Shown here: piece after piece, positions 23,552 through 58,710 of the stretch
Layout of the letters: each line of letters starts with the position of its first letter
How positions within the stretch are numbered: the first letter of the stretch is position 1
Source of the DNA: Phyto melanocephala
Lineage: Eukaryota > Arthropoda > Insecta > Diptera > Rhinophoridae
DNA: 64,000 nucleotides
Direction: 5' to 3'
Assembly: GCA_941918925.1 (NCBI GenBank)
Contig: OW799233.1
Location: forward strand, 177,537,235-177,601,234
The notes under the pieces: generated by a model
The model's database searches: none
Seen by the model: only the letters and a program-made list of their open reading frames with translations
What the model was told of the DNA's origin: nothing
Position numbers and translations under genes: made by a program

Positions 23552-24866
23552 CAAGGTGGCGCAAAAATAACCTTTTGATGTTTTTTGGCTGTAATTAAAA
23601 AAAATGAAAAACTTTGATTCTTCTTGTGGAGTATTTTTATTTGGTCTTTTAATTTTTTTTTACATCAAGTAGAGAATATGATGTCATGTAAATGGCCGCC
23701 GCCACAGTTGATTGTCATTTGAGCCCTTTTTATGGCATTTTCCATCACTTTGGCCAAAACTTCCGGCGATAGGTCCTCACATTCTTGACGGATATTGTCT
23801 TTAAGAGCTGCAAGAGTCTGAGGCTTGTTGACATAAACCCGCGACTTCAAAAAGCCCCACAAAAAGAAGTCTGGAGCGGTCAAATCAGGCGATCTTGCTG
23901 GCCAGTTCAAATCGCCAAAACGGGTGATTAGGCGCCCGGGAAATGCATCCTTCAGCATATCGGTTGTGGCACGTGCAGTGTGTGCTGTTGCACCGTCCTG
24001 TTGGAACCACATGTTTTCCAATCCCAATTCATCAAGTTGCGGCAAAAAGAACTTGTTGATCATGATCTGTAGCGCTCACCATTCACAGTAACCGTTTGGC
24101 CCTCGACGTCTTCAAAGAAAAAAGGTCCGATGACTCCTCCAGCGAAAACAGCACACCATACAGTAACTTTGAGCGGGTGTAATGGCTCTTCGTGGGTTAC
24201 ACGCGGATTTTCAGTGCCCCAGAAGCATAAATTTTGCTTATTTACGTACCCGCTAAGATGGAAATGGGCCTCATCAATCATGATTATTTTTGATGAAAAA
24301 TCATCTTCCTCTTGGTGGTGATTCAGGATGGCTTGAGCGTATGTTAGACGCGATTGGCGGTCAGCAGCTAACAGCGGATGCACCGTCTGGACTTTGTACG
24401 GAAACATCTTCAAATCTTGTACCAAAATTCGCTGTAAAGACCGTCGACTGATAGCCATTTGCGTGGCACGTTGTCTGGTCGATGTCGACGGCGCTTCCAT
24501 GACATCCTCGGCTACAGCAGCAATTTTCTCTGCAGAACGGCTACTCCGGGGTCTGCCACTCCTGGCAGCATCTCGTGTTGTGCCAGTCTCTTCGAGGCGA
24601 GCGGCTAAACGTCGCAGTGTTTCACCAGTAGGCGTTGGACGGCTAGGAAATCTGCGACGAAATTCACGTTGTGCCAAAGTCACCGACCAAAGTCAAATAA
24701 ATAGTCACCAATATTCCGCGTTCTGGAACAGTGTAGCGTAACATTGTTTATTAACGTGTATTTTGCATGTGTTTACTACACAAATGTCAAAACAGAACTG
24801 ACATTAGGGGCCAATTGCAAAATTTGTAGCATTTTCTGATAGGAGGATTTCTTTTGCGCCACCTTG
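23552..24866 (-). mobile_element. DD41D (rosa-like) mariner transposon inserted in the pogo-like element
   Basis: The terminal inverted repeats CAAGGTGGCGCAAAAATAA (left) and CAAGGTGGCGCAAAAGAAA (right, reverse complement) are flanked by TA on both sides. Length is 1315 bp, typical of mariners. It lies entirely within the pogo-like element, so it arrived later. Its base composition is richer in GC and more codon-like than the surroundings, and the reading frames are nearly intact. Both facts suggest a relatively recent insertion. Confidence 0.85.
23665..24744 (-). pseudogene. Mariner transposase, all catalytic Asp retained but frameshifted
   Basis: The likely start is ATG at 24744 (MLRYTVPERGILVTIYL), which must shift frame near 24680-24720 to enter TLAQREFRRRFPSRPTPTGE. 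A second frameshift near 24062 separates VTVNGERYRS from MINKFFLPQLDELGLE. The rest is well preserved: DNA-binding helices, the GRPRSSRS linker, first catalytic Asp in MIDEAHFHLSGYVNKQN, second in WFQQDGATAHTAR, third in SPDLTAPDFFLWG. There are 41 residues between the second and third Asp, the DD41D spacing of rosa-like mariners. Two small indels are enough to inactivate it. Confidence 0.85.
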
Positions 24867-34504: not shown

Positions 34505-36637
34505 GTTTCATATATCACAGTACAACACATGATTTGCCAACTCAATTCTGTTAACTGTATGTGAAATTAGACCCAAAAAGAAGAATTTCTGCATCATTCG
34601 TTTTGTCTTCTTACCTGCGATTTGAAGTTAGTATCGATTTGAAGTTAGTACTATCGTATAGGGGAATTTATCACGTTTTAGGCCCTGTTGTTTGAGATAG
34701 CTCGACAACCACTAGCCCAATTTAGTTGAAATGAATTTTAAAAAATTAAGAATTACAATTCCCTTAATCTGTTCATATATTGTTTTCCTATACAAGTAAC
34801 ACTTTCGAAGTTAAAAATGAATGTATGAAGGGAAAAAATTATTTTTTGCCTAAAAATTTAAATTTTTTTTTTTTTAAATACATAAAAAATCCAAAATGGA
34901 AAAAAGTTTCAAGTCAGTCTAGTTAATTTTTCGCAAAGTCACATAACCTATGAGCAAAATGAGACAAAGATCATAAAAATCGATGCACGCGTTTCGCTTT
35001 TATTCGCAATTGAGTAAATGTATGAATTTCAAAAATCAGTTATAGCCACCACCCTTAAAATAAAAATAAAAATATAAATTAAAAAATTATCATGAAAAAA
35101 AAATTTTATTTATAAAAACTTAATGAAAATAAAATAATATGCAATTAATACGCAATTATAATATGCATAAAAACAAAATTTAGAACATTTTTTCAATTAT
35201 TGGCAATATCCATCCTTGTAGAAGTTGACGCTTGTGGTTCTGATGATCTTGTTTTCTTCGTAGGTTGTTCATATTCATGGTCTGAGTCTGTATCGTCATC
35301 CGAGATACGCATAATTTATGCATGCATAGCACCTGGATTCATCATGTCCAGTTGTGTCTTCCACCCAAATTACTGGCTTCATAAAAGATAACTTTCTACT
35401 TTTTCCGTGAATCCATTTTAGAAGGGTAGTATAACAACTGTTGCACACTGTGTTCGGCGTAAAATTTGCACCACTTAAATCTGCTTCATCGAAATAATTA
35501 CAATACGCGGTTTTGAATTGCTCAGTAAACAAATTTTTTCGATCTTTTTTCTGTATTTTTCGGACGATATGACCACAAACGTAACAATATTCATCCAAAT
35601 ATGGGCACTTGTTGTTTTCCATATTGATATATTTTATGTTTTGTTGTTATTCACTTTTAAAAAACTGGAGAAAAATCACTTTTACTGTTCGCGTTCGTCG
35701 GCACTGGCTGAATGCCAAAAGTCGATCAATGCACACCCCTAAATACTACGTATTTTTGAATATTTTACTGCCATGTACTTATAAATGGGCGCATATTTTA
35801 AGGGCGGCTGGCTATATACCTGATTCAGCACTTGTACGTTTCAAACTGTGCAAAACTTTCAAAATAATGACCACCCTTAAATGTGGGTGCAATTTCTGTA
35901 AAAAAATCATATAGGTAGCCACCGGAAAAACCAAAATAATAAAAAGGTCCACTTTCCGTTTAATTGTCCACGTACATTTATTACCGCAATCATAAAAATC
36001 AAATAACCTTTTGTTTATTCCTTTTTTTTTAATTCTCAGAATCATGAAAAAGGTGTCAATGTTTTCTCCAAATAATGTTGTGCATATCTCGAGCAAATTT
36101 TTGAAATTCATACATTTACTCAATTGCGAATAAAAGCGAAACGCGTGCATCGATTTTTATGATCTTTGTCTCATTTTGCTCATAGGTTATGTGACTTTGC
36201 GAAAAAATAACTAGACTTGAAACTTTTTTCCATTTTGGATTTTTTATGTATTTAAAAAAAAAAAAAATTTAAATTTTTAGGCAAAAAATAATTTTGTCCC
36301 TTCATACATTCATTTTTAACTTCGAAAGTGTTACTTGTATAGGAAAACAATATATGAACAGATTAAGGGAATTGTAATTCTTAATTTTTTAAAATTTATT
36401 TCAACTAAATTGGGCTAGTGGTTGTCGAGCTATGTCAAACAACAGGGCCTAAAACGTGATAAATTCCCCTATACGATAGTACTAACTTCAAATCGATACT
36501 AACTTCAAATCGCAGGTAAGAAGACAAAACGAATGATGCAGAAATTCTTCTTTTTGGGTCTAATTTCACATACAGTTAACAGAATTGAGTTGGCAATCAA
36601 TTAACTGAAAAATGTTGTACTGTGTATTTAAACGAGG
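34505..36637. mobile_element. 2.1-kb element with ~0.5-kb terminal inverted repeats
   Basis: Sequence from about 34505 to 35036 is repeated almost base for base in reverse complement at about 36094-36637. Shared landmarks are GCCAACTCAATTCTGTTAAC, GATTTGAAGTTAGTA, GTTTTAGGCCCTGTTGTTTG and CGATGCACGCGTTTCGCTTT. The outermost part (CACAGTACAACA) also matches, but the two ends differ there by a short indel. The arms are interrupted by about 1 kb with a cysteine-rich minus-strand ORF. No clear target duplication was found. This is most likely a DNA transposon of unidentified superfamily. Confidence 0.75.
35210..35622 (-). pseudogene. Cysteine-rich putative zinc-binding protein of the inverted-repeat element
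   Basis: An ATG at 35622 begins MENNKCPYLDEYCYVCGHIV, followed by paired cysteines in CNSCYTTLLKWIHGKSRKL, then FMKPVIWVEDTTGHDESRC and CYACINY. Regular Cys pairs and the His/Cys end suggest a zinc-binding fold. The first frame stops at 35296. The next frame continues MRISDDDTDSDHEYEQPTKK and SSEPQASTSTRMDIANN, an acidic Ser-rich tail. A frameshift or a small intron is therefore likely near 35310. Its location inside near-identical inverted termini says it belongs to a transposon. I cannot name the family and see no DDE-type catalytic core. Confidence 0.5.
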
Positions 36638-45468: not shown

Positions 45469-46690
45469 CAAGGTCTATTGTTCAAAAAATGTCAAATTTT
45501 GTGTCAAGAAAGTGCTTTTGGGTAAAAAATTTATTTACTACTGTAATTTAGGCCAAGGTACCGCTGAAACACACCACTAGTTCGTCGAAGCTTTTGGTGA
45601 ATGTGCTGCATCAGTTTTAACGGGTGAAATATAATTCAGAAGAGGTGATTTCGACACAGATCGATCTTTGTCTTCCGTGTTATACAGTGTAAAGAGTAAG
45701 AATTGAATATCGTTTTAAAGCTCAGCTAGAGCCGTCCAATTTATTGGGAGCTACTCAAGCAGCAATTTCAAAACGTTTTGCGAGCAGCTCATCCAAAAGC
45801 TAAAAATTTCAGTATCATGTTAGTTAAAGTTGAAAGATCTTAAAATGCGATTTTGCATGCCAGAGATGCTGCTTGAACGTATAAAAAGAGAATAATACTT
45901 TAGCCCGAAAAATGGATCCACTATGGTAACCAAAAGCGTAACACATCATGTGAAGTCCGGCGGCCAATCAGCTGAGTCGACAACAAAGACAAATATCATA
46001 GCGCTAAGCTAGTGCTCTGTATTTGGTGTGATCACAAGGGCCATATCTATTACGAATTGCTTAACTCTGGTCAGTCAATTACAGTAAACCTGCACCACGC
46101 ACAACTTATTTCTATAAAGCGAGCATTGGCCGAAAAACGTCCAGAATATGCAGGCAGACATGGAACCGTAATATTTCATCACGATAACACTGGGCCACAT
46201 ATTGCAAAAACTGTTTCTAAAATTAGTAGTAAAAGTTTTATCTCACCCGCCTTATAGGCCAAACATTATCTCTCCGAATACTTCTGGTTTCGATCAATGC
46301 AGAACGATCGCTCTCTAGTATATGCTTTACTTTAAACAGAGTACACAAAATTTCTTTCGTTCTTAGTCTTAAAAGAAGAGCAGTTCGTTTGATGTGATTT
46401 CCATATCTAGCCAAAAAGATGGGAAAACGTCATAGTTAATACCAAGGCGAATTCAATAAGGTGAACTCGTCGCTAAAACAACTACAAAGTTAAAAAATAC
46501 AAACGTGTATTTTGTTAGTGTAAAACAAAACGATATATCAAAAATACACAAAAATTTGACAAGTGGTCCCTAGAAGTAGTCAACAGCTGATGATCAGCTG
46601 AGCTAATAAGTTCACCTTATTGAATTCGCCTTGGTTAATACTTTGAATAAATTTGTACTGTACAAATGTTTCGAAATAAAAGCTTAAATT
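45469..46690 (+). pseudogene. DD34D mariner relic (Mos1-like), interrupted by a MITE
   Basis: The left terminus CAAGGTCTATTGTTCAAAAA follows TA. Plus-strand frames give LGATQAAISKRFAS (about 45745-45785), then after indels CMPEMLLERIKRE-like and WIHYGNQK-like segments. A clean stretch follows from 46012, LCIWCDHKGHIYYELLN and RALAEKRPEYAGRH, then VIFHHDNTGPHIAKTVS with the second catalytic Asp. The third motif region (PPYRPNI) is altered. The 3' untranslated CAAATGTTTCGAAATAAAAG remains. The right terminal repeat was not found. The copy is dead. Confidence 0.7.
46443..46633. mobile_element. 191-bp hAT-like MITE inside the mariner relic
   Basis: The termini CAAGGCGAATTCAATAAGGT plus GAAC are perfectly inverted at the right end. 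The element is flanked by GTTAATAC on both sides (46435-46442 and 46634-46641), an exact 8-bp target duplication. It sits just before the 3' untranslated tail of the mariner, so it inserted after it. Confidence 0.85.
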
Positions 46691-47079
46691 TTTAAAAAGA
46701 AAAATCTATACTTTTTAGTTATATATCTAATAATAATTTTTTTTAAGATTTTCCCAAAATTATTGCAAAATTTCTTGTTGAAATAAACAAGTGTCACATC
46801 ATCCCGACGTAGAGTGTTTGGTGTAGAAATACAAGTAAAAGTTCAAATGTGTGTGAAGATAAATACGCCGAGTTAAATACGTTTTTAGTGATAGAAAAAA
46901 AATATCGCATGCGATAAAAAAGTTTTTAATACGTAAAATTAACAAATTTGCACTAATTTTTAAATTTTCTGTGTGTTTAAACATTAAAAACTAATATTCG
47001 TAGTGCAAATGAACAATACAATAAACTTTTAGTAAAATTATTCTTTTTTTTGTATTTTTTTGTTCTCAAGCAAATTGTT

Positions 47080-49477
47080 CATACATGAGTCCTTTTAGGG
47101 ATTTAGTTAGTACAATCCTATATTACCATCTCAATAAACTAAACCTAGTGGAAATTGAAGGTAACTACCTATGCTATCAAACCACATTTATAATTTTTCC
47201 CAATTGTATTTGTGAATATTTTTATAAAATTTTTAAAATTTGACTTAGTGCAAATTTTCTAATATATGTATGAGCTCTTGGAGGGATGTGGTCAGTATGA
47301 CCATATCTTAACATCTCAATAAATTAAACCTAATGGAAATTAAAGGTAACTACCTATGCTATCAAAACACATTTATACTTTTTCCCAATTGTATTTGTGA
47401 ATATTTTTATAAAATTTTTAAAATTTGACTTAGTGCAAATTTTTTAATATATGAGCTCTTGGAGGGATGTGGTCAGTATGACCATATCTTAACATCTCAA
47501 TAAATTAAACCTAGTGGAAGTTGAAGGTAACTACCTATGCTATCAAACCACATTTATACTTTTTCCCAATTGTATTTGTGAATATTTTTATAAAATTTTT
47601 AAAATTTGACTTAGTGCAAATTTTCTAATATATGTATGAGCTCTTGGAGGGATGTGGTCAGTATGACCATATCTTAACATCTCAATAAATTAAACCTAGT
47701 GGAAATTGAAGGTATCTACCTATGCTATTAAACCACATTTATACTTTTTTCCAATTGTATTTGTGAATATTTTTATAAAATTTTTTAAATTTGACTTAGT
47801 GCAAATTTTCTAATATATGAGCTCTTGGAGGGATGTGGTCAGTATGACCATATCTTAACATCTCAATGAATTAAACCTAGTGGAAATTGAAGGTAACTAC
47901 CTATGCTATTAAGCCACATTTATACTTTTTCCCAATTGTATTTGTGAATATTTTTATAAAATTTTTTAAATTTGACTTAGTGCAAATTTTCTACTATATG
48001 AGGTCTTGGAGGGATGTGGTCAGTATGACCATATCTTAACATCTCAATGAATTAAACCTAGTGGAAATTGAAGGTAACTACCTGTGCTATTAAACCACAT
48101 TTATACTTTTTCCCAATTGTATTTGTGAATATTTTTATATAATTTTTAAAATTTGACTTAGTGCAAATTGTCTACTATATGAGGTCTTGGAGGGATGTGG
48201 TCAGTATGACCATATCTTAACATCTCAATGAATTAAACCTAGTGGAAATTGAAGGTAACTACCTGTGCTATTAAACCACATTTATACTTTTTCCCAATTG
48301 TATTTGTGAATATTTTTATAAAGTTTTTAAAATTTGACTTAGTGCAAATTTTCTACTATATGAGGTCTTGGAGGGATGTGGTCAGTATGACCATATCTTA
48401 ACATCGCAATGAATTAAACCTAGTGGAAATTGAAGGTAACTACCTGTGCTATTAAACCACATTTATACTTTTTCCCAATTGTATTTGTGAATATTTTTAT
48501 ATAATTTTTAAAATTTGACTTAGTGCAAATTGTCTACTATATGAGGTCTTGGAGGGATGTGGTCAGTATGACCATATCTTAACATCTCAATGAATTAAAC
48601 CTAGTGGAAATTGAAGGTATCTACCTATGCTATTAAACCACATTTATACTTTTTCCCAATTGTATTTGTGAATATTTTTATAAAATTTTTAAAATTTGAC
48701 TTAGTGCAAATTTTCTAATATATGAGCTCTTGGAGGGATGTGGTCAGTATGACCATATCTTAACATCTCAATGAATTAAACCTAGTGGAAATTGAAGGTA
48801 ACTACTTGTGCTATTAAGCCACATTTATACTTTTTCCCAATTGTATTTGTGAATATTTTTATAAAGTTTTTAAAATTTGACTTAGTGCAAATTTTCTACT
48901 ATATGAGGTCTTGGAGGGATGTGGTCAGTATGACCATATCTTAACATCTCAATGAATTAAATCTAGTGGAAATTGAAGGTAACTACCTGTGCTATTAAAC
49001 CACATTTATACTTTTTCCCAATTGTATTTGTGAATATTTTTATATAATTTTTAAAATTTGACTTAGTGCAAATTGTCTACTATATGAGGTCTTGGAGGGA
49101 TGTGGTCAGTATGATCATATCTTAACATCTCAATGAATTAAACCTAGTGGAAATTGAAGGTAACTACCTGTGCTATTAAACCACATTTATACTTTTTCCC
49201 AATTGTATTTGTGAATATTTTTATAAAGTTTTTAAAATTTGACTTAGTGCAAATTTTCTACTATATGAGGTCTTGGAGGGATGTGGTCAGTATGACCATA
49301 TCTTAACATCTCAATGAATTAAACCTAGTGGAAATTGAAGGTAACTACCTGTGCTATTAAACCACATTTATACTTTTTCCCAATTGTATTTGTGAATATT
49401 TTTATAGAGTTTTTAAAATTTGACTTAGTGCAAATTTTCTACTATATGAGGTCTTGGAGGGATGTGGTCAGTATGAC
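47080..49477 (+). repeat. Left-arm array of 181-bp units (about 13 copies)
   Basis: The landmark GGGATGTGGTCAGTATGACC recurs at 47283, 47464, 47649, 47830, 48011, 48192, 48373, 48554, 48735, 48916, 49097, 49278 and 49459. Spacing is almost always 181, once 185 because of an extra TATG. Unit variants differ at ATGAGGTCTT versus ATGAGCTCTT. The first partial unit (about 47090) is divergent and joins the outer cap. Each unit holds an imperfect palindrome around GGTCAGTATGACC. Confidence 0.9.
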
Positions 49478-49484
49478 TTTTTGA

Positions 49485-51715
49485 AGTTACCTTCAATTTC
49501 CACTAGGTTTAATTCATTGAGATGTTAAGATATGGTCATACTGACCACATCCCTCCAAGACCTCATATAGTAGAAAATTTGCACTAAGTCAAATTTTAAA
49601 AACTTTATAAAAATATTCACAAATACAATTGGGAAAAAGTATAAATGTGGTTTAATAGCACAGGTAGTTACCTTCAATTTCCACTAGGTTTAATTCATTG
49701 AGATGTTAAGATATGGTCATACTGACCACATCCCTCCAAGAGCTCATACATATATTAGAAAATTTGCACTAAGTCAAATTTTTAAAACTTTATAAAAATA
49801 TTCACAAATACAATTGGGAAAAAGTATAAATGTGGTTTAATAGCATAGGTAGTTACCTTCAATTTCCACTAGGTTTAATTCATTGAGATGTTAAGATATG
49901 GTCATACTGACCACATCCCTCCAAGACCTCATATAGTAGAAAATTTGCACTAAGTCAAATTTTAAAAACTTTATAAAAATATTCACAAATACAATTGGGA
50001 AAAAGTATAAATGTGGTTTAATAGCACAGGTAGTTACCTTCAATTTCCACTAGGTTTAATTCATTGAGATGTTAAGATATGGTCATACTGACCACATCCC
50101 TCCAAGAGCTCATACATATATTAGAAAATTTGCACTAAGTCAAATTTTTAAAACTTTATAAAAATATTCACAAATACAATTGGGAAAAAGTATAAATGTG
50201 GTTTAATAGCACAGGTAGTTACCTTCAATTTCCACTAGGTTTAATTCATTGAGATGTTAAGATATGGTCATACTGACCACATCCCTCCAAGACCTCATAT
50301 AGTAGAAAATTTGCACTAAGTCAAATTTTAAAAATTCTATAAAAATATTCACAAATACAATTGGGAAAAAGTATAAATGTGGTTTAGTAGCATAGGTAGT
50401 TACCTTCAATTTCCACTAGGTTTAATTCATTGAGATGTTAAGATATGGTCATACTGACCACATCCCTCCAAGACCTCATATAGTAGAAAATTTGCACTAA
50501 GTCAAATTTTAAAAACTTTATAAAAATATTCACAAATACAATTGGGAAAAAGTATAAATGTGGTTTAATAGCACAGGTAGTTACCTTCAATTTCCACTAG
50601 GTTTAATTCATTGAGATGTTAAGATATGGTCATACTGACCACATCCCTCCAAGACCTCATATAGTAGAAAATTTGCACTAAGTCAAATTTTAAAAACTTT
50701 ATAAAAATATTCACAAATACAATTGGGAAAAAGTATAAATGTGGTTTAATAGCACAGGTAGTTACCTTCAATTTCCACTAGGTTTAATTCATTGAGATGT
50801 TAAGATATGGTCATACTGACCACATCCCTCCAAGACCTCATATAGTAGACAATTTGCACTAAGTCAAATTTTAAAAATTATATAAAAATATTCACAAATA
50901 CAATTGGGAAAAAGTATAAATGTGGTTTAATAGCACAGGTAGTTACCTTCAATTTCCACTAGGTTTAATTCATTGAGATGTTAAGATATGGTCATACTGA
51001 CCACATCCCTCCAAGACCTCATATAGTAGAAAATTTGCACTAAGTCAAATTTTAAAAACTTTATAAAAATATTCACAAATACAATTGGGAAAAAGTATAA
51101 ATGTGGTTTAATAGCACAGGTAGTTACCTTCAATTTCCACTAGGTTTAATTCATTGAGATGTTAAGATATGGTCATACTGACCACATCCCTCCAAGAGCT
51201 CATACATATATTAGAAAATTTGCACTAAGTCAAATTTTTAAAACTTTATAAAAATATTCACAAATACAATTGGGAAAAAGTATAAATGTGGTTTAATAGC
51301 ATAGGAAGTTACCTTCAATTTCCACTAGGTTTAATTCATTGAGATGTTAAGATATGGTCATACTGACCACATCCCTCCAAGACCTCATATAGTAGAAAAT
51401 TTGCACTAAGTCAAATTTTAAAAACTTTATAAAAATATTCACAAATACAATTGGGAAAAAGTATAAATGTGGTTTAATAGCACAGGTAGTTACCTTCAAT
51501 TTCCACTAGGTTTAATTCATTGAGATGTTAAGATATGGTCATACTGACCACATCCCTCCAAGAGCTCATACATATATTAGAAAATTTGCACTAAGTCAAA
51601 TTTTTAAAACTTTATAAAAATATTCACAAATACAATTGGGAAAAAGTATAAATGTGGTTTAATAGCATAGGAAGTTACCTTCAATTTCCACTAGGTTTAA
51701 TTTATTGAGATGGTA
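49485..51715 (-). repeat. Right-arm array of 181-bp units (about 12 copies, inverted)
   Basis: The reverse-complement landmark CATCCCTCC recurs at 49548, 49729, 49914, 50095, 50280, 50461, 50642, 50823, 51004, 51185, 51370 and 51551. Spacings are 181 or 185. The longer units carry GAGCTCATACATATATTAG, the shorter ones GACCTCATATAGTAG. The order of the two variants is not the mirror image of the left arm, so the arms have evolved separately. Confidence 0.9.
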
Positions 51716-52414
51716 ATATATGATTGTACTAATTAAATCCCTAAAAGGACTCATGTATGAACAATTTGCTTGAGGACAAAAAAAATACAAAAAAAAAGAA
51801 TAATTTTACTAAAAGTTTATTGTATTATTCATTTGCACTACGAATATTAATTTTTAATGTTTAAACACACAGAAAATTTAAAAATTAGTGCAAAATTGTT
51901 AATTTTACGTATTAAAAAGTTTTTTATCGCATGCGATATTTTTTTTTCTATCACTAAAAACGTATTTAACTAGGCGTATTTATCTTCACACACATAAAGT
52001 TCAAGTGTAAAAAATATAAACAATTTAAAGTAGTACAAGAGGACATGTTTTCGAAGGGAAGAAAACAATCACAAGAATTATCAAGAAAAAATCTGTACAG
52101 TTTTTACAGTCAGTTAAAGTCAGTTGATTTGATTTTTTTTTCCTTCTTCTTATTCATCTTTTAAATTATAAACGGCAAATATTTAATTGCTAGCGGATAT
52201 AAGGGAGTTAAAAGAAAAGTTCAAGCACAAAGTTGGTAGTAGGTTGAAGAATAAAAAAAAATATATATTTTGCAGTGATTTCAGTTTTTTTTATATTTAA
52301 TTTTTTATTTTTGTGCTCCAAAAAATATGGCTTTTTAAAGAGGGGTTATAAACCAAAGTTTTTCCTTTTGATTAAATTAACATTTTTTTTATTTTGGTTT
52401 TTTAGCTTACGAAA

Positions 52415-54638: not shown

Positions 54639-55562
54639 CAAGGTCGGGGCAAAAGTCGCGAAGGAATTTGAAAAATTAATAACTTTTCTAATTTAATTTT
54701 TTTTTATTTTTTCTTTATTTTTTTCTATTTAGGACTTGTAAAATAAATCTGGGAGATTAATTATGGAAGGTTACAACGTTATCCAGCGAGCCAAAATCAT
54801 AGAACTTTAATTTGAACATCATCGATCAATAATTCAAACTCAACGAGCCTATCGTCGTCATTTTAATGTGCGGAATTCACTATCCGAATCAATGATTCGA
54901 CGCTTAGTGACACGATTTCAGGAACAAGGCTCAGTGAGGGATCATCCACGAAGCGGAAGACCACATTCTGTAATTAGTGACGCAAATATTCAACGCGTTA
55001 TAGAAAGTGTTGAGGAGAATCCTGAAACATCAACTCGAAGGCGCTCCGCTGAGATATGATCCAAAATTTATTAAGGCCAGCTCTTTCTGACAATCGAGAG
55101 ATGTGGTTCCAACAATATGGGGCCACTGCACACACTGCTCGAGCCACTATGCAGCTCCTAAGGCTGATTTTTGGCGAACGTTTAATTTCCAAAAAATCAG
55201 CATTCAATTGGCCTGCCCGTTCGCCGGATTTAACAGCACCAGATTATTTCCTTTGGGGATATTTGAAAGAGGAGGTGTATATCAATAAACCCAGAACACT
55301 TGCACAGCTCAAAGAGAATGTTCGAGCCGAAATAAGAGCGTTGCAGCCAGATACTCTGACTCGTGTCATGAAAAATGCCATTAAAAGAGCTCAACTTTGC
55401 GAGGCTGAAAATGGTGCTAACTTACGTGACGTAATCTTTCACACCTAAATTTAAAAAATCTCCCAATATCATATTTTATTATTTTGTAAAAAAAAACATT
55501 AGATTAAAAATTAAAAAAGTTATGACTGTTTTAAATCCCTGCGCAACTTTTGCCCCACCCTG
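54639..55562 (+). mobile_element. Internally deleted DD41D mariner
   Basis: The left terminus CAAGGTCGGGGCAAAAGT and the right terminus (reverse complement CAGGGTGGGGCAAAAGT) are flanked by TA (54637-54638 and 55563-55564). At 924 bp it is about 400 bp shorter than the related element at 23552. It resembles that element in both terminal sequence and protein motifs, but it is a separate lineage. Confidence 0.85.
54763..55448 (+). pseudogene. Defective DD41D transposase (deletion and catalytic Asp to Tyr)
   Basis: ATG 54763 starts MEGYNVIQRAKIIEL, followed by a stop and then RAYRRHFNVRNSLSESMIRR, the helix-turn-helix part. GRPHSVISDANIQRVIESV leads to STRRRSAE, where the frame breaks. Coding resumes at 55056 with RPALSDNREMWFQQ. 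The first catalytic Asp region is deleted, well over 100 residues compared with the copy at 23665-24744. The second motif reads QQYGATAHTAR, with Tyr in place of Asp. The third motif SPDLTAPDYFLWG and the C-terminus to ANLRDVIFHT are intact. It cannot catalyse transposition. Confidence 0.8.
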
Positions 55563-56620: not shown

Positions 56621-57398
56621 TTCACTAAGTAGTTTCGAACTTTATCTGTCTTAATCAACCAGAGTTTTTCTGTATGTATCTTTATTAGTTTTTGGCACTG
56701 TCCACATTTAACTGACAAATAGATGGTTTACACGCTTTATGTCCATTTTCTTTTTAAATGTAATTTTGAACTGTTGGTCTTGCATGGCTAAAATCTGAAT
56801 CATAAATGAATCTAAAATTAATTTTATAGAAATACTGTATTTGCCTAGGCCCTTTCAGTGGTCTGTCTTAATGTTTATAAATTAATCCCTCATAATGACA
56901 GCACCTTGTTAAGGTAACAAAACCCCTTTAGATAGTGTTAGAAACTAAGTACCCTATAAAAAAAAAGAGTAATAGACTACAAAAATAACGCACATTAGGT
57001 AAGCTCTTACCATCCACCTACAAGCTAACTACAAGGTAATCCATATTTAAAACATAGATAAGAGTTTTTATTTTGTTTTGAGAAAAACAGACATTAAACG
57101 GTTGTTTTACTTGTTAGTTTTTATAATTTTGATTTTTGGAGTTTTTTGTGCTGGAAGTTAGTAAAGTTAAATAAGTGAAGTAATTTAAACATGGGAGGTA
57201 GGCGTTAAAGTGGGCGTGACTTCTGAACTTTCTGGCGTAACAATGACATTGACTAGAAGGATATATGTAGCAAATCAAACCATCATCATACCTCTAATTT
57301 TATTGGTTTTATGAGCTTTTAAATTTCATTAACAGTAGATAACGTTAAAAGTGGGCGTTATAGTAGGCGTGTCGAAGTTGTTTCTGCTAATGAATACA

Positions 57399-58710
57399 GT
57401 TCGGATTTAAATATAAACATTCAACTGTCAATGCAATTCATCTACTTACATCTAACATTAATTGGAACTGGAATAAAAAATTATGCACGGGTGCTTGCTT
57501 AATCGACATGGAAAAAGCTTTTGATAGCATTTGGATTCCGGGACTAATTTTTAAATTAAATCAATATAAATTTCCCATAAATCAAATCATACTGATCTAT
57601 AATATGATTTGTGACAAATCTTTTACAATAATACATCAAAATCACAAAAGCAGAAAATTTTTTAAAATCGTAAATGGATTACAACAGGGAACTGTTAACT
57701 CTCCCATTATTTTTAATATATTTATTCTTGACCTTTGGAGTAAAATAGAGAATATTATCTCTTTTGCAGATGATATTATTATATATCACGCGGATAAAAC
57801 AATCGAGAAAATCAATGAAAAACTTCAAGACTTGTTTAATATTGTGGAAAAGTTTACTATAGATTGGAATATGACAATTAATATAAAAAAATGTGAAACA
57901 ATTCTGTTTAGACCTCCAGTTGATAAATGCAATAGTAATATAAGGAAAAATTGGAAAGAATTTGGAATTAAATCTAATTTATCCAATATGGATATACCCA
58001 ACAAAAAAGTAGTTAAGTATTTAGGTATTTACTTAGATAATTTTTTATATTTCAATTACCATGTTAAGGAAGTACTAAACAAAGCTAGAAAGGCATTCTT
58101 TGTATATAAATCGTTGTTCTATTCAAAATACATAAAATCTAGAGTCAAAATAATTATGTACCAATCCTTGATTAGACCAGTCATAACATACGGGAGTCCA
58201 ATATGGTTTAATGTTTCACCTTCTTACATGGAAAAGATACGGGTTTTCGAACGAAAATGTTTAAGAGCTTGCACTTCGTTACATAGATCTCCAAACAGCA
58301 ATTTTTTAAAGTATATATCTAATAAAAAATTATATAACGCTTCAAATATTATAAGAATAGATAATTTTATTATAAACTTAATTAGAGATAATATTTTAAG
58401 ATGTACTAAATGTAACGAAAATAATTTGATAATGGCACCGTACTATACAAATGAAGAATATATAAAAGCGACATTGCAAAAATGATTTGTTCCACCTGAG
58501 GCATTTTTATATCTCGATAAAATAGGGGTTATACAAAACCAAAATGGCATACCAGTCTTTTATCATAATTTTAGACGGGCCAATATTAAAGCAGTAAATT
58601 GCAATGAAACAAATAATTATAATTTACGTCACGACACAAGTATTTCTAATAGAGATTTTTATAGTTTACAGTGTTCGAAAACCAAAAAATTTTGGTGGTT
58701 AAATGAATAA
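57399..58710 (+). pseudogene. Reverse transcriptase of the non-LTR element, one premature stop
   Basis: The frame runs QFGFKYKHSTVNAI, then CTGACLIDMEKAFDSIW (catalytic Asp region A), GLQQGTVNSPIIFNIF (region B) and ISFADDIIIYHADK (the FADD active site). The thumb segment (KVVKYLGIYLDN) and the usual C-terminal RT-connection pattern follow. TGA at 58483-58485 stops it, but the same frame continues FVPPEAFLYLDKIGV to KFWWLNE and a final TAA near 58708. One stop is thus the main lesion visible. The retained motifs suggest it was active recently. The endonuclease part is missing through truncation. Confidence 0.8.

What the first reader, a model, noticed from the sequence alone, without database searches (positions are those of the whole stretch)
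46847..51995. A complete Foldback-type element with an exact 9-bp target duplication
Two arms of about 2.6 and 2.5 kb are inverted around a spacer of about 7 bp. Each is an array of 181-bp units capped by a conserved non-array end, and AAAGTTCAA flanks both sides. Foldback elements of flies have this design and a 9-bp duplication. The end sequence ATGTGTGTGAAGATAAATAC and the 181-bp unit match no family I can name, so this may be a new lineage.
Basis: partly seen in the sequence, partly recalled or inferred. Interest (0 to 1): 0.88.

Follow-up and report, generated by a model that had tools for sequence, protein, structure and literature searches.

The report
Jumping palindromes made of satellite DNA
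This is a 5-kilobase palindrome of satellite-like repeats in what is likely a fly genome, one of 40 pairs of matching ends 0.8 to 26.5 kilobases apart there, 34 of them between identical 9-base duplications; it likely jumps whole, moved by a transposase predicted to be made elsewhere, and its centre is likely cut and rejoined along the way.

Summary
46847-51995 is a 5,149-bp element: 240/243-bp caps, inverted arrays of 181/185-bp units, a 7-bp centre, exact 9-bp TSD AAAGTTCAA. The window lies in an unnamed 740-Mb genome that could be searched. The terminal 21-mer occurs there at 85 exact places; with two one-mismatch places these form 40 convergent pairs 0.77-26.5 kb apart. 34 of 40 pairs, this one included, have an exact 9-bp TSD, all different. 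All 20 copies read in full are cap-array-array-cap without a core; the other 20 were not read in full. 21 centres seen give 18 different array-array junctions; three recur in two copies each, with different TSDs and arm lengths. Two copies differ by 3 substitutions in 4,860 bp of outer arm while one has lost its centre. So whole palindromes transpose, recently, and centres are deleted and rejoined. A sister family shares the first 18 bp and a homologous 172-bp unit; its one copy read has a single direct array. No transposase was linked: none of 135 scored MULE matches lies inside any of 79 pairs of the two families. It works like a Foldback/Rehavkus/Tetris element, probably moved by a Mutator-type transposase; membership of a named family is unproven. 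New variant of a known kind.

The parts
46838..46846 (.). left target-site duplication AAAGTTCAA
46847..47086 (+). left cap (non-array terminal domain, begins ATGTGTGTGAAGATAAATACGCC)
   Evidence: identical over 200 aligned positions to at least one cap of another copy
47087..49477 (+). left array: 14 units of 181/185 bp, outermost diverged, innermost partial (30 bp)
49478..49484 (.). centre, 7-bp filler TTTTTGA joining unit phase 30 (+) to phase 80 (-)
49485..51752 (-). right array: 13 units, 181/185 bp, innermost partial (80 bp)
51753..51995 (-). right cap, 243 bp, 96% identical to left cap, of the variant cap type with T, C, T at three diagnostic positions
51996..52004 (.). right target-site duplication AAAGTTCAA

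Best explanation
This is a Foldback-type DNA transposon made only of two caps and two inverted satellite arrays, which likely moves as a whole palindrome with a 9-bp target duplication, predicted to be moved by a Mutator-type (MULE) transposase supplied in trans, and whose centre is likely deleted and rejoined repeatedly by end joining. Shown: capped ends, arrays, absence of a core in 20 of 20 copies read in full, exact 9-bp duplications at 34 of 40 end pairs, 18 different junctions in 21 centres, shared junctions at different sites, left and right caps of separate ancestry in most copies. Inferred: that it is non-autonomous, the transposase class (from duplication length and resemblance to other foldback families), cut-and-paste, and the way centres are remade (failed gap repair after excision, or nuclease cleavage of the extruded palindrome followed by joining). 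Unit number changes are inferred to come from unequal exchange or slippage.
For: Window anatomy. 40 convergent pairs from 87 sites against 0.135 expected at random. TSDs over the 40: 34 exact 9 bp, all different; 1 exact 10 bp; 1 of 9 with one mismatch; 1 of 7 bp; 3 none. Interiors of 20 copies are unit arrays only, no gap over about 40 bp. Junction phases differ, with fillers of 1-7 bp or overlaps of 1-34 bp (the longest overlaps partly reflect AT-rich or palindromic stretches that align to both strands); C4_109317/C3_89726, C5_29915/C2_42390 and C2_98836/C4_23680 share a junction but have different TSDs and arm lengths. C4_23680 vs C1_33663: 3 substitutions in 4,860 bp of outer arms, the centre of one lost. 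Window left and right caps are each identical over 200 aligned positions to a cap of another copy but differ from each other by 5; 33 of 40 copies have a cap closer to a foreign cap than to their own partner. The genome holds MULE domains, two read with FLYWCH+MULE.
Against: No transposase is linked: 0 of 135 scored MULE matches (150 scored of 654 candidates) lie inside any of 40 + 39 pairs, and 4 MULE loci searched with 10-13 kb lack a pair of these ends (one lone 20-mer with 5 mismatches near L035). 20 of the 40 interiors were not read in full. Three pairs have no TSD; one of them (C5_42121) has inverted flanks, so some palindromes arise or change by local rearrangement. Five of 17 junctions with measured phases join phases within 10 bases of each other, near-symmetric centres that simple non-homologous joining does not predict in particular (about 2 expected by my arithmetic). 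No empty site was found: the window's flanks are single copy.
Confidence: 0.85

Rival explanations
1. Local palindrome formation: each inverted array arose in place by fold-back template switching or inverted duplication, and only looks like a transposon.
For: C5_42121 has about 315 bp of inverted flank (199 of the adjoining 200 bp identical) and identical caps, no TSD, inside an array of the sister family. Five of 17 measured junctions are near-symmetric in phase.
Against: 34 of 40 pairs have exact, different 9-bp direct duplications; in 33 of 40 copies a cap is closer to a foreign cap than to its partner; junctions are shared between distant sites.
Confidence: 0.05
2. Assembly artefact: chimeric or collapsed long reads joined two arrays head to head.
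For: Long near-identical inverted arrays are hard to assemble; unit counts, above all in the longest copies, may be wrong (inference).
Against: The centre is asymmetric and out of phase, arms differ in unit order, TSDs are exact and different at 34 loci, the same junction is found at two loci in three cases.
Confidence: 0.03
3. Foldback element of the P superfamily (Galileo-like) rather than Mutator.
For: Galileo has long repetitive arms, first-found copies made only of arms, and independent change of repeat number in the two arms (PMC3573991, passages).
Against: 34 of 40 duplications are exactly 9 bp; P-superfamily duplications are 7-8 bp (recalled). The genome search for a P-type domain did not complete, so this rival was not tested on the transposase side.
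Confidence: 0.08
4. The palindromes are seeds or remnants of a satellite DNA whose main arrays lie elsewhere; transposition is incidental.
For: Tetris of D. virilis gave rise to satellite arrays (PMC4079207, abstract and sections 10, 17-19); arms here reach 77 units; two orphan ends run into arrays longer than the stretch read (L067, L069).
Against: 80 of 87 listed ends are paired. Uncapped arrays were not searched for.
Confidence: 0.2

Closest known systems
Tetris (Drosophila virilis foldback; PMC4079207, abstract and sections 10, 17-19)
   Same: Outer flanking domain, then tandem repeats (about 220 bp) in the inverted arms; duplications of 8-10 bp; no transposase copy found by its authors; repeat number varies
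   Different: Tetris has an inner and a middle domain; arms up to 1,735 bp, 3-4 repeats in the allelic copies described. Here no middle, arms up to 77 units. Tetris flank and repeat share a 37-bp stretch; here cap and unit similarity did not exceed shuffles. Sequences were not compared
Rehavkus-1_TC (Tribolium; passages of PMC10218199)
   Different: A 9.5-kb DNA transposon; here the 20 copies read in full are coreless. Sequence not compared
Drosophila FB / FB-NOF
   Same: Foldback design; 9-bp duplication (recalled)
   Different: FB repeats are short, 10-31 bp (recalled); full-length FB-NOF carries a gene (recalled); none seen here
Galileo (P superfamily; passages of PMC3573991)
   Same: Long arms with about 210-bp tandem repeats in one subfamily, copies made of arms only, exchange among copies
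   Different: Duplication length (7-8 bp recalled, 9 here); arms to about 1.26 kb only
Tm1 (Phantom/Mutator foldback of root-knot nematodes; passages of PMC3169594)
   Same: Composite repetitive arms of unequal length; 8-10-bp, mostly 9-bp duplications in 45 of 53 elements; non-coding copies beside a copy coding for a FLYWCH-MULE protein
   Different: About 14-bp repeats; a transposase copy is known

Membership tests
Foldback-type (design class) | Long inverted arms made largely of direct repeats | tested here: met
   20 of 20 copies read in full
Foldback-type (design class) | Target-site duplication of about 9 bp | tested here: met
   34 of 40 exact 9 bp
FB/FB-NOF of Drosophila | FB's own short 10/20/31-bp repeats (recalled) | tested here: not met
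   the repeat units are 181/185 bp; the FB sequence itself was not available and shorter sub-repeats were not searched for
FB/FB-NOF of Drosophila | Some copies carry a NOF gene between the arms (recalled) | tested here: inconclusive
   no core in 20 of 20 copies read in full, but 20 of 40 pairs were not read in full
Mutator superfamily (MULE) | 8-10-bp, mostly 9-bp duplication | tested here: met
   34 of 40 exact 9 bp, 1 exact 10 bp
Mutator superfamily (MULE) | MULE transposase in an element with the same ends | tested here: inconclusive
   MULE domains exist but none of 135 scored matches lies inside a pair; 504 of 654 candidates were not scored
Rehavkus | Sequence or transposase similarity to Rehavkus | not testable with these tools
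   no repeat library held
Tetris | Sequence similarity of flank domain or 220-bp repeat | not testable with these tools
   sequence not held; design compared from PMC4079207
Galileo / P superfamily | 7-8-bp duplication (recalled) | tested here: not met
   9 bp

The most novel reading that the evidence does not exclude
A satellite DNA that travels as a transposon: the family has shed its core and spreads over the large chromosomes as pure satellite palindromes of 0.8 to 26.5 kb, and each break and repair of a palindrome's centre leaves a heritable junction that works as a natural barcode, so that transposition, arm growth and centre loss can be read off one genome copy by copy. With the sister family it forms a guild of satellites that share one 18-bp terminus and one unseen transposase, and so turn a transposon end into a general vehicle for satellites.
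Probability: 0.45. Interest if true: 0.75.

Novelty: new variant of a known kind. Interest (0 to 1): 0.58.

Why it matters
How satellites spread to new places and how long palindromes survive in chromosomes are old questions. Here dozens of copies in one assembly, some very young, carry both an insertion mark (the TSD) and a repair mark (the centre junction), so whether palindrome centres are lost during transposition or during replication could be tested directly. Long, similar inverted arms at many sites would also be substrates for ectopic exchange and chromosome inversions (as published for DAIBAM and Galileo; section 18 of PMC4079207).

Tried and rejected
Cap as the source of the unit (as in Tetris): local score 29 against 300 shuffles reaching 39, not supported. 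Terminal 20-mer hidden in the unit as an extra transposase site: 12 of 20 matches, reached by 195 of 300 shuffles, not supported. Core in other ends: of the seven orphan exact ends, L067 and L069 run on in units, L068 turns from + to - units after a few hundred bases, and L063/L064, L065, L066 have a cap and a few units followed by other DNA; so does the one-mismatch L061. These followers share pieces of repeats with each other (70-90% over up to about 500 bp, at different offsets); I judged them, by eye, to be dispersed repeats and not a common core, but did not search them further. The one-mismatch copies L058-L060 are diverged and broken, L062 runs on in units. Link to MULE genes: none. Paralogous empty site: none, flanks single copy. 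Relatives in bacterial and viral contigs: 3 and 1 loci share 18-21 bp of the terminus and nothing more, taken as chance; three further 19-24-mers found nothing in viral contigs. Whole-element alignment of sister copies by MAFFT was uninformative, so units were aligned instead. Rfam and tRNA scans of the window: nothing. Papers seen: PMC4079207 abstract and sections 10, 17-19; PMC3573991, PMC3169594, PMC10218199 passages; PMC12910113 one reference-list passage; all others only as search listings. Searches ended in script errors (36 after printing most results); one search set one boundary of L071 wrongly, the centre printed is used instead.
Full report
OBSERVATION. Reading inward from each end there is a 240/243-bp cap, then an array of 181-bp units (some 185 bp through a GTAT insertion), then a 7-bp centre, TTTTTGA. 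AAAGTTCAA stands on both sides. The terminus matches nowhere else in the window with up to 3 mismatches, and never in 100 shuffles. The caps are 96% identical. The first four unit spacings of the two arms agree, and unit types mostly do; further in they do not. The two arrays meet out of phase: the left stops at unit phase 30, the right begins at phase 80. No stop-to-stop reading frame of 110 codons or more lies within it.

GENOME. The window lies in an unnamed 740-Mb assembly of 9 contigs, likely a fly: a reverse transcriptase in the window has its best named match in Lucilia cuprina (62%), and a MULE transposase of the genome in Zeugodacus cucurbitae (73% over 62% of the query). The 21-bp terminus with up to 2 mismatches occurs 167 + 152 times, against 1 + 2 for the reversed control; this count takes in the sister family below. 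The 85 exact places and two with one mismatch give 40 convergent pairs less than 40 kb apart, 0.77 to 26.5 kb (median 6.2 kb), on C1-C5, against 0.135 at random; 7 of the 87 places stay single. The other one-mismatch places listed were not used for pairing.

TARGET DUPLICATIONS. Of the 40 pairs, 34 have an exact 9-bp duplication, one an exact 10-bp one, one a 9-bp one with a mismatch, one 7 bp, and three none (window; 13 more copies read in full; one pair by its ends only; 25). The 34 are all different. The largest pair (26.5 kb, C3:69869594-69896127) was read only at its ends; both carry GCCACCAAG.

NO CORE. Twenty copies were read from end to end (the window, 13 with one end completed, and six). 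All are cap, array, inverted array, cap, without any stretch longer than about 40 bp that is not cap or unit. A further copy (C2_98836) was read over 12.3 of 17.9 kb, centre included, and at its far end. The other 19 were read only at their ends. Arms run from a partial unit to 77 units.

CENTRES AS BARCODES. In the 21 centres seen there are 18 different junctions: 12 in 15 copies and six more, compared with the 12 by eye. They carry 1-7 bp of filler or overlaps of 1-34 bp. Of 17 junctions with a measured phase on both sides, 12 join phases more than 10 bases apart and 5 do not; C1_33663 is joined at the unit's own short palindrome. Three junctions occur twice, at different sites with different duplications and different arm lengths: C4_109317/C3_89726, C5_29915/C2_42390 and C2_98836/C4_23680. 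Thus whole palindromes move and arrays change length. C4_23680 and C1_33663 show centre loss: their outer arms differ by 3 substitutions in 4,860 bp, while C1_33663 lacks inner units and the junction that C4_23680 shares with C2_98836, and has another. That the shared junction is the older one is inferred.

ARMS ARE LARGELY SEPARATE LINEAGES. The window's left and right caps differ by 5 in 200 aligned positions, yet each is identical to a cap of some other copy. In 33 of 40 copies at least one cap is closer to a foreign cap than to its own partner. A variant cap type (13 of 80 caps, in 12 copies) stands at one end only in 11 of those 12, the window among them. Against full independence, the mean left-right difference within copies (3.5) is below that between caps of different copies (4.8). 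In 14 of 15 copies units of one arm are more alike than units of different copies (window 2.5% against 4.5%; exception C4_4124, 6.1% against 5.7%; outermost two units left out). The outermost unit is its own type, 10% from inner units but 5% between copies.

SISTER FAMILY. L057 begins and ends with the same 18 bp, has TIRs of about 128 bp and one direct array of 172-bp units. No duplication is visible at its ends. Its unit aligns along its length with the 181-bp unit (score 72; 1000 shuffles mean 37.1, sd 6.4, maximum 65); their cap sequences beyond the first 18 bp do not align better than shuffles (73 against a maximum of 91). Its 21-bp terminus with up to 1 mismatch occurs 75 + 72 times (control 0 + 0); the first 100 places, all that were listed, form 39 pairs. 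Only this one copy was read. The F1 copy C5_42121 lies inside an inverted array of this sister unit, with about 315 bp of inverted flank and no duplication: a rearranged locus that my model does not explain in full.

TRANSPOSASE. MULE domains are common in the genome (135 matches at E <= 0.001 from 150 scored of 654 candidates); two of the best are FLYWCH+MULE proteins, the domain pair named for Phantom in PMC3169594. Four MULE loci with 10-13 kb of sequence lack a pair of these ends and no scored MULE match lies inside any pair. The Mutator assignment therefore rests on the 9-bp duplication and on analogy with Tm1 and Tetris.

MECHANISM. Shown by the sequences: insertion marks at most copies, the same palindrome centre at distant sites, caps of separate ancestry, change of centre and of unit number among close sisters. 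Inferred: movement of the whole palindrome by a MULE transposase acting in trans on the caps; centre loss by failed gap repair after excision or by cleavage of the extruded palindrome; length change by unequal exchange or slippage. The choice between the two routes of centre loss is open.

KNOWN KINDS. The design is that of Foldback elements. Tetris and Rehavkus come closest by repeat length, Tm1 by duplication and transposase class, Galileo by arms-only copies. None was compared by sequence. What differs is the lack of a core in every copy read in full, the length of the arms, and the coexistence of a sister family with a direct array.

Noticed in passing
window 46443-46633: A 191-bp MITE-like element with inverted ends (27 bp exact, overlapping the flanks by 2 bp) and an 8-bp duplication GTTAATAC, just upstream of the palindrome; hAT-like by duplication length (recalled).
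   Followed up: partly
window 34534-36596: Two inverted repeats of about 504 bp (98%) around a core with a 116-aa reading frame that matches no Pfam family; no clear target duplication.
   Followed up: partly
window 23665-24692 (-) and 55053-55448 (+): Remnants that read like mariner-type transposases (by eye; Pfam gave only two HTH-type domains for one of the three frames).
   Followed up: no
window 57394-58485 (+): 363-aa reverse transcriptase frame, jockey-like, 62% identical to a Lucilia cuprina protein.
   Followed up: partly
L043, L044 and C5:42121376-42124722: A copy of this family at the centre of an inverted array of the sister family's unit: about 315 bp of inverted flank, identical caps, no target duplication.
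   Followed up: partly
L033 with L049 and L050 (C3:45848558-45861342): A FLYWCH-MULE transposase frame flanked by its own tandem and inverted repeats, unlike those of this element.
   Followed up: partly
C6:10527949 and C6:10599868 (L063, L064): The same truncated copy twice, 72 kb apart, with the same 14 bp of flank printed and 1,660 identical bases of interior: a segmental duplication or an assembly duplicate.
   Followed up: no
L004 1599-1619 (-): An IMG/VR contig holds the exact 21-bp terminus once, with nothing else alike; probably chance.
   Followed up: partly
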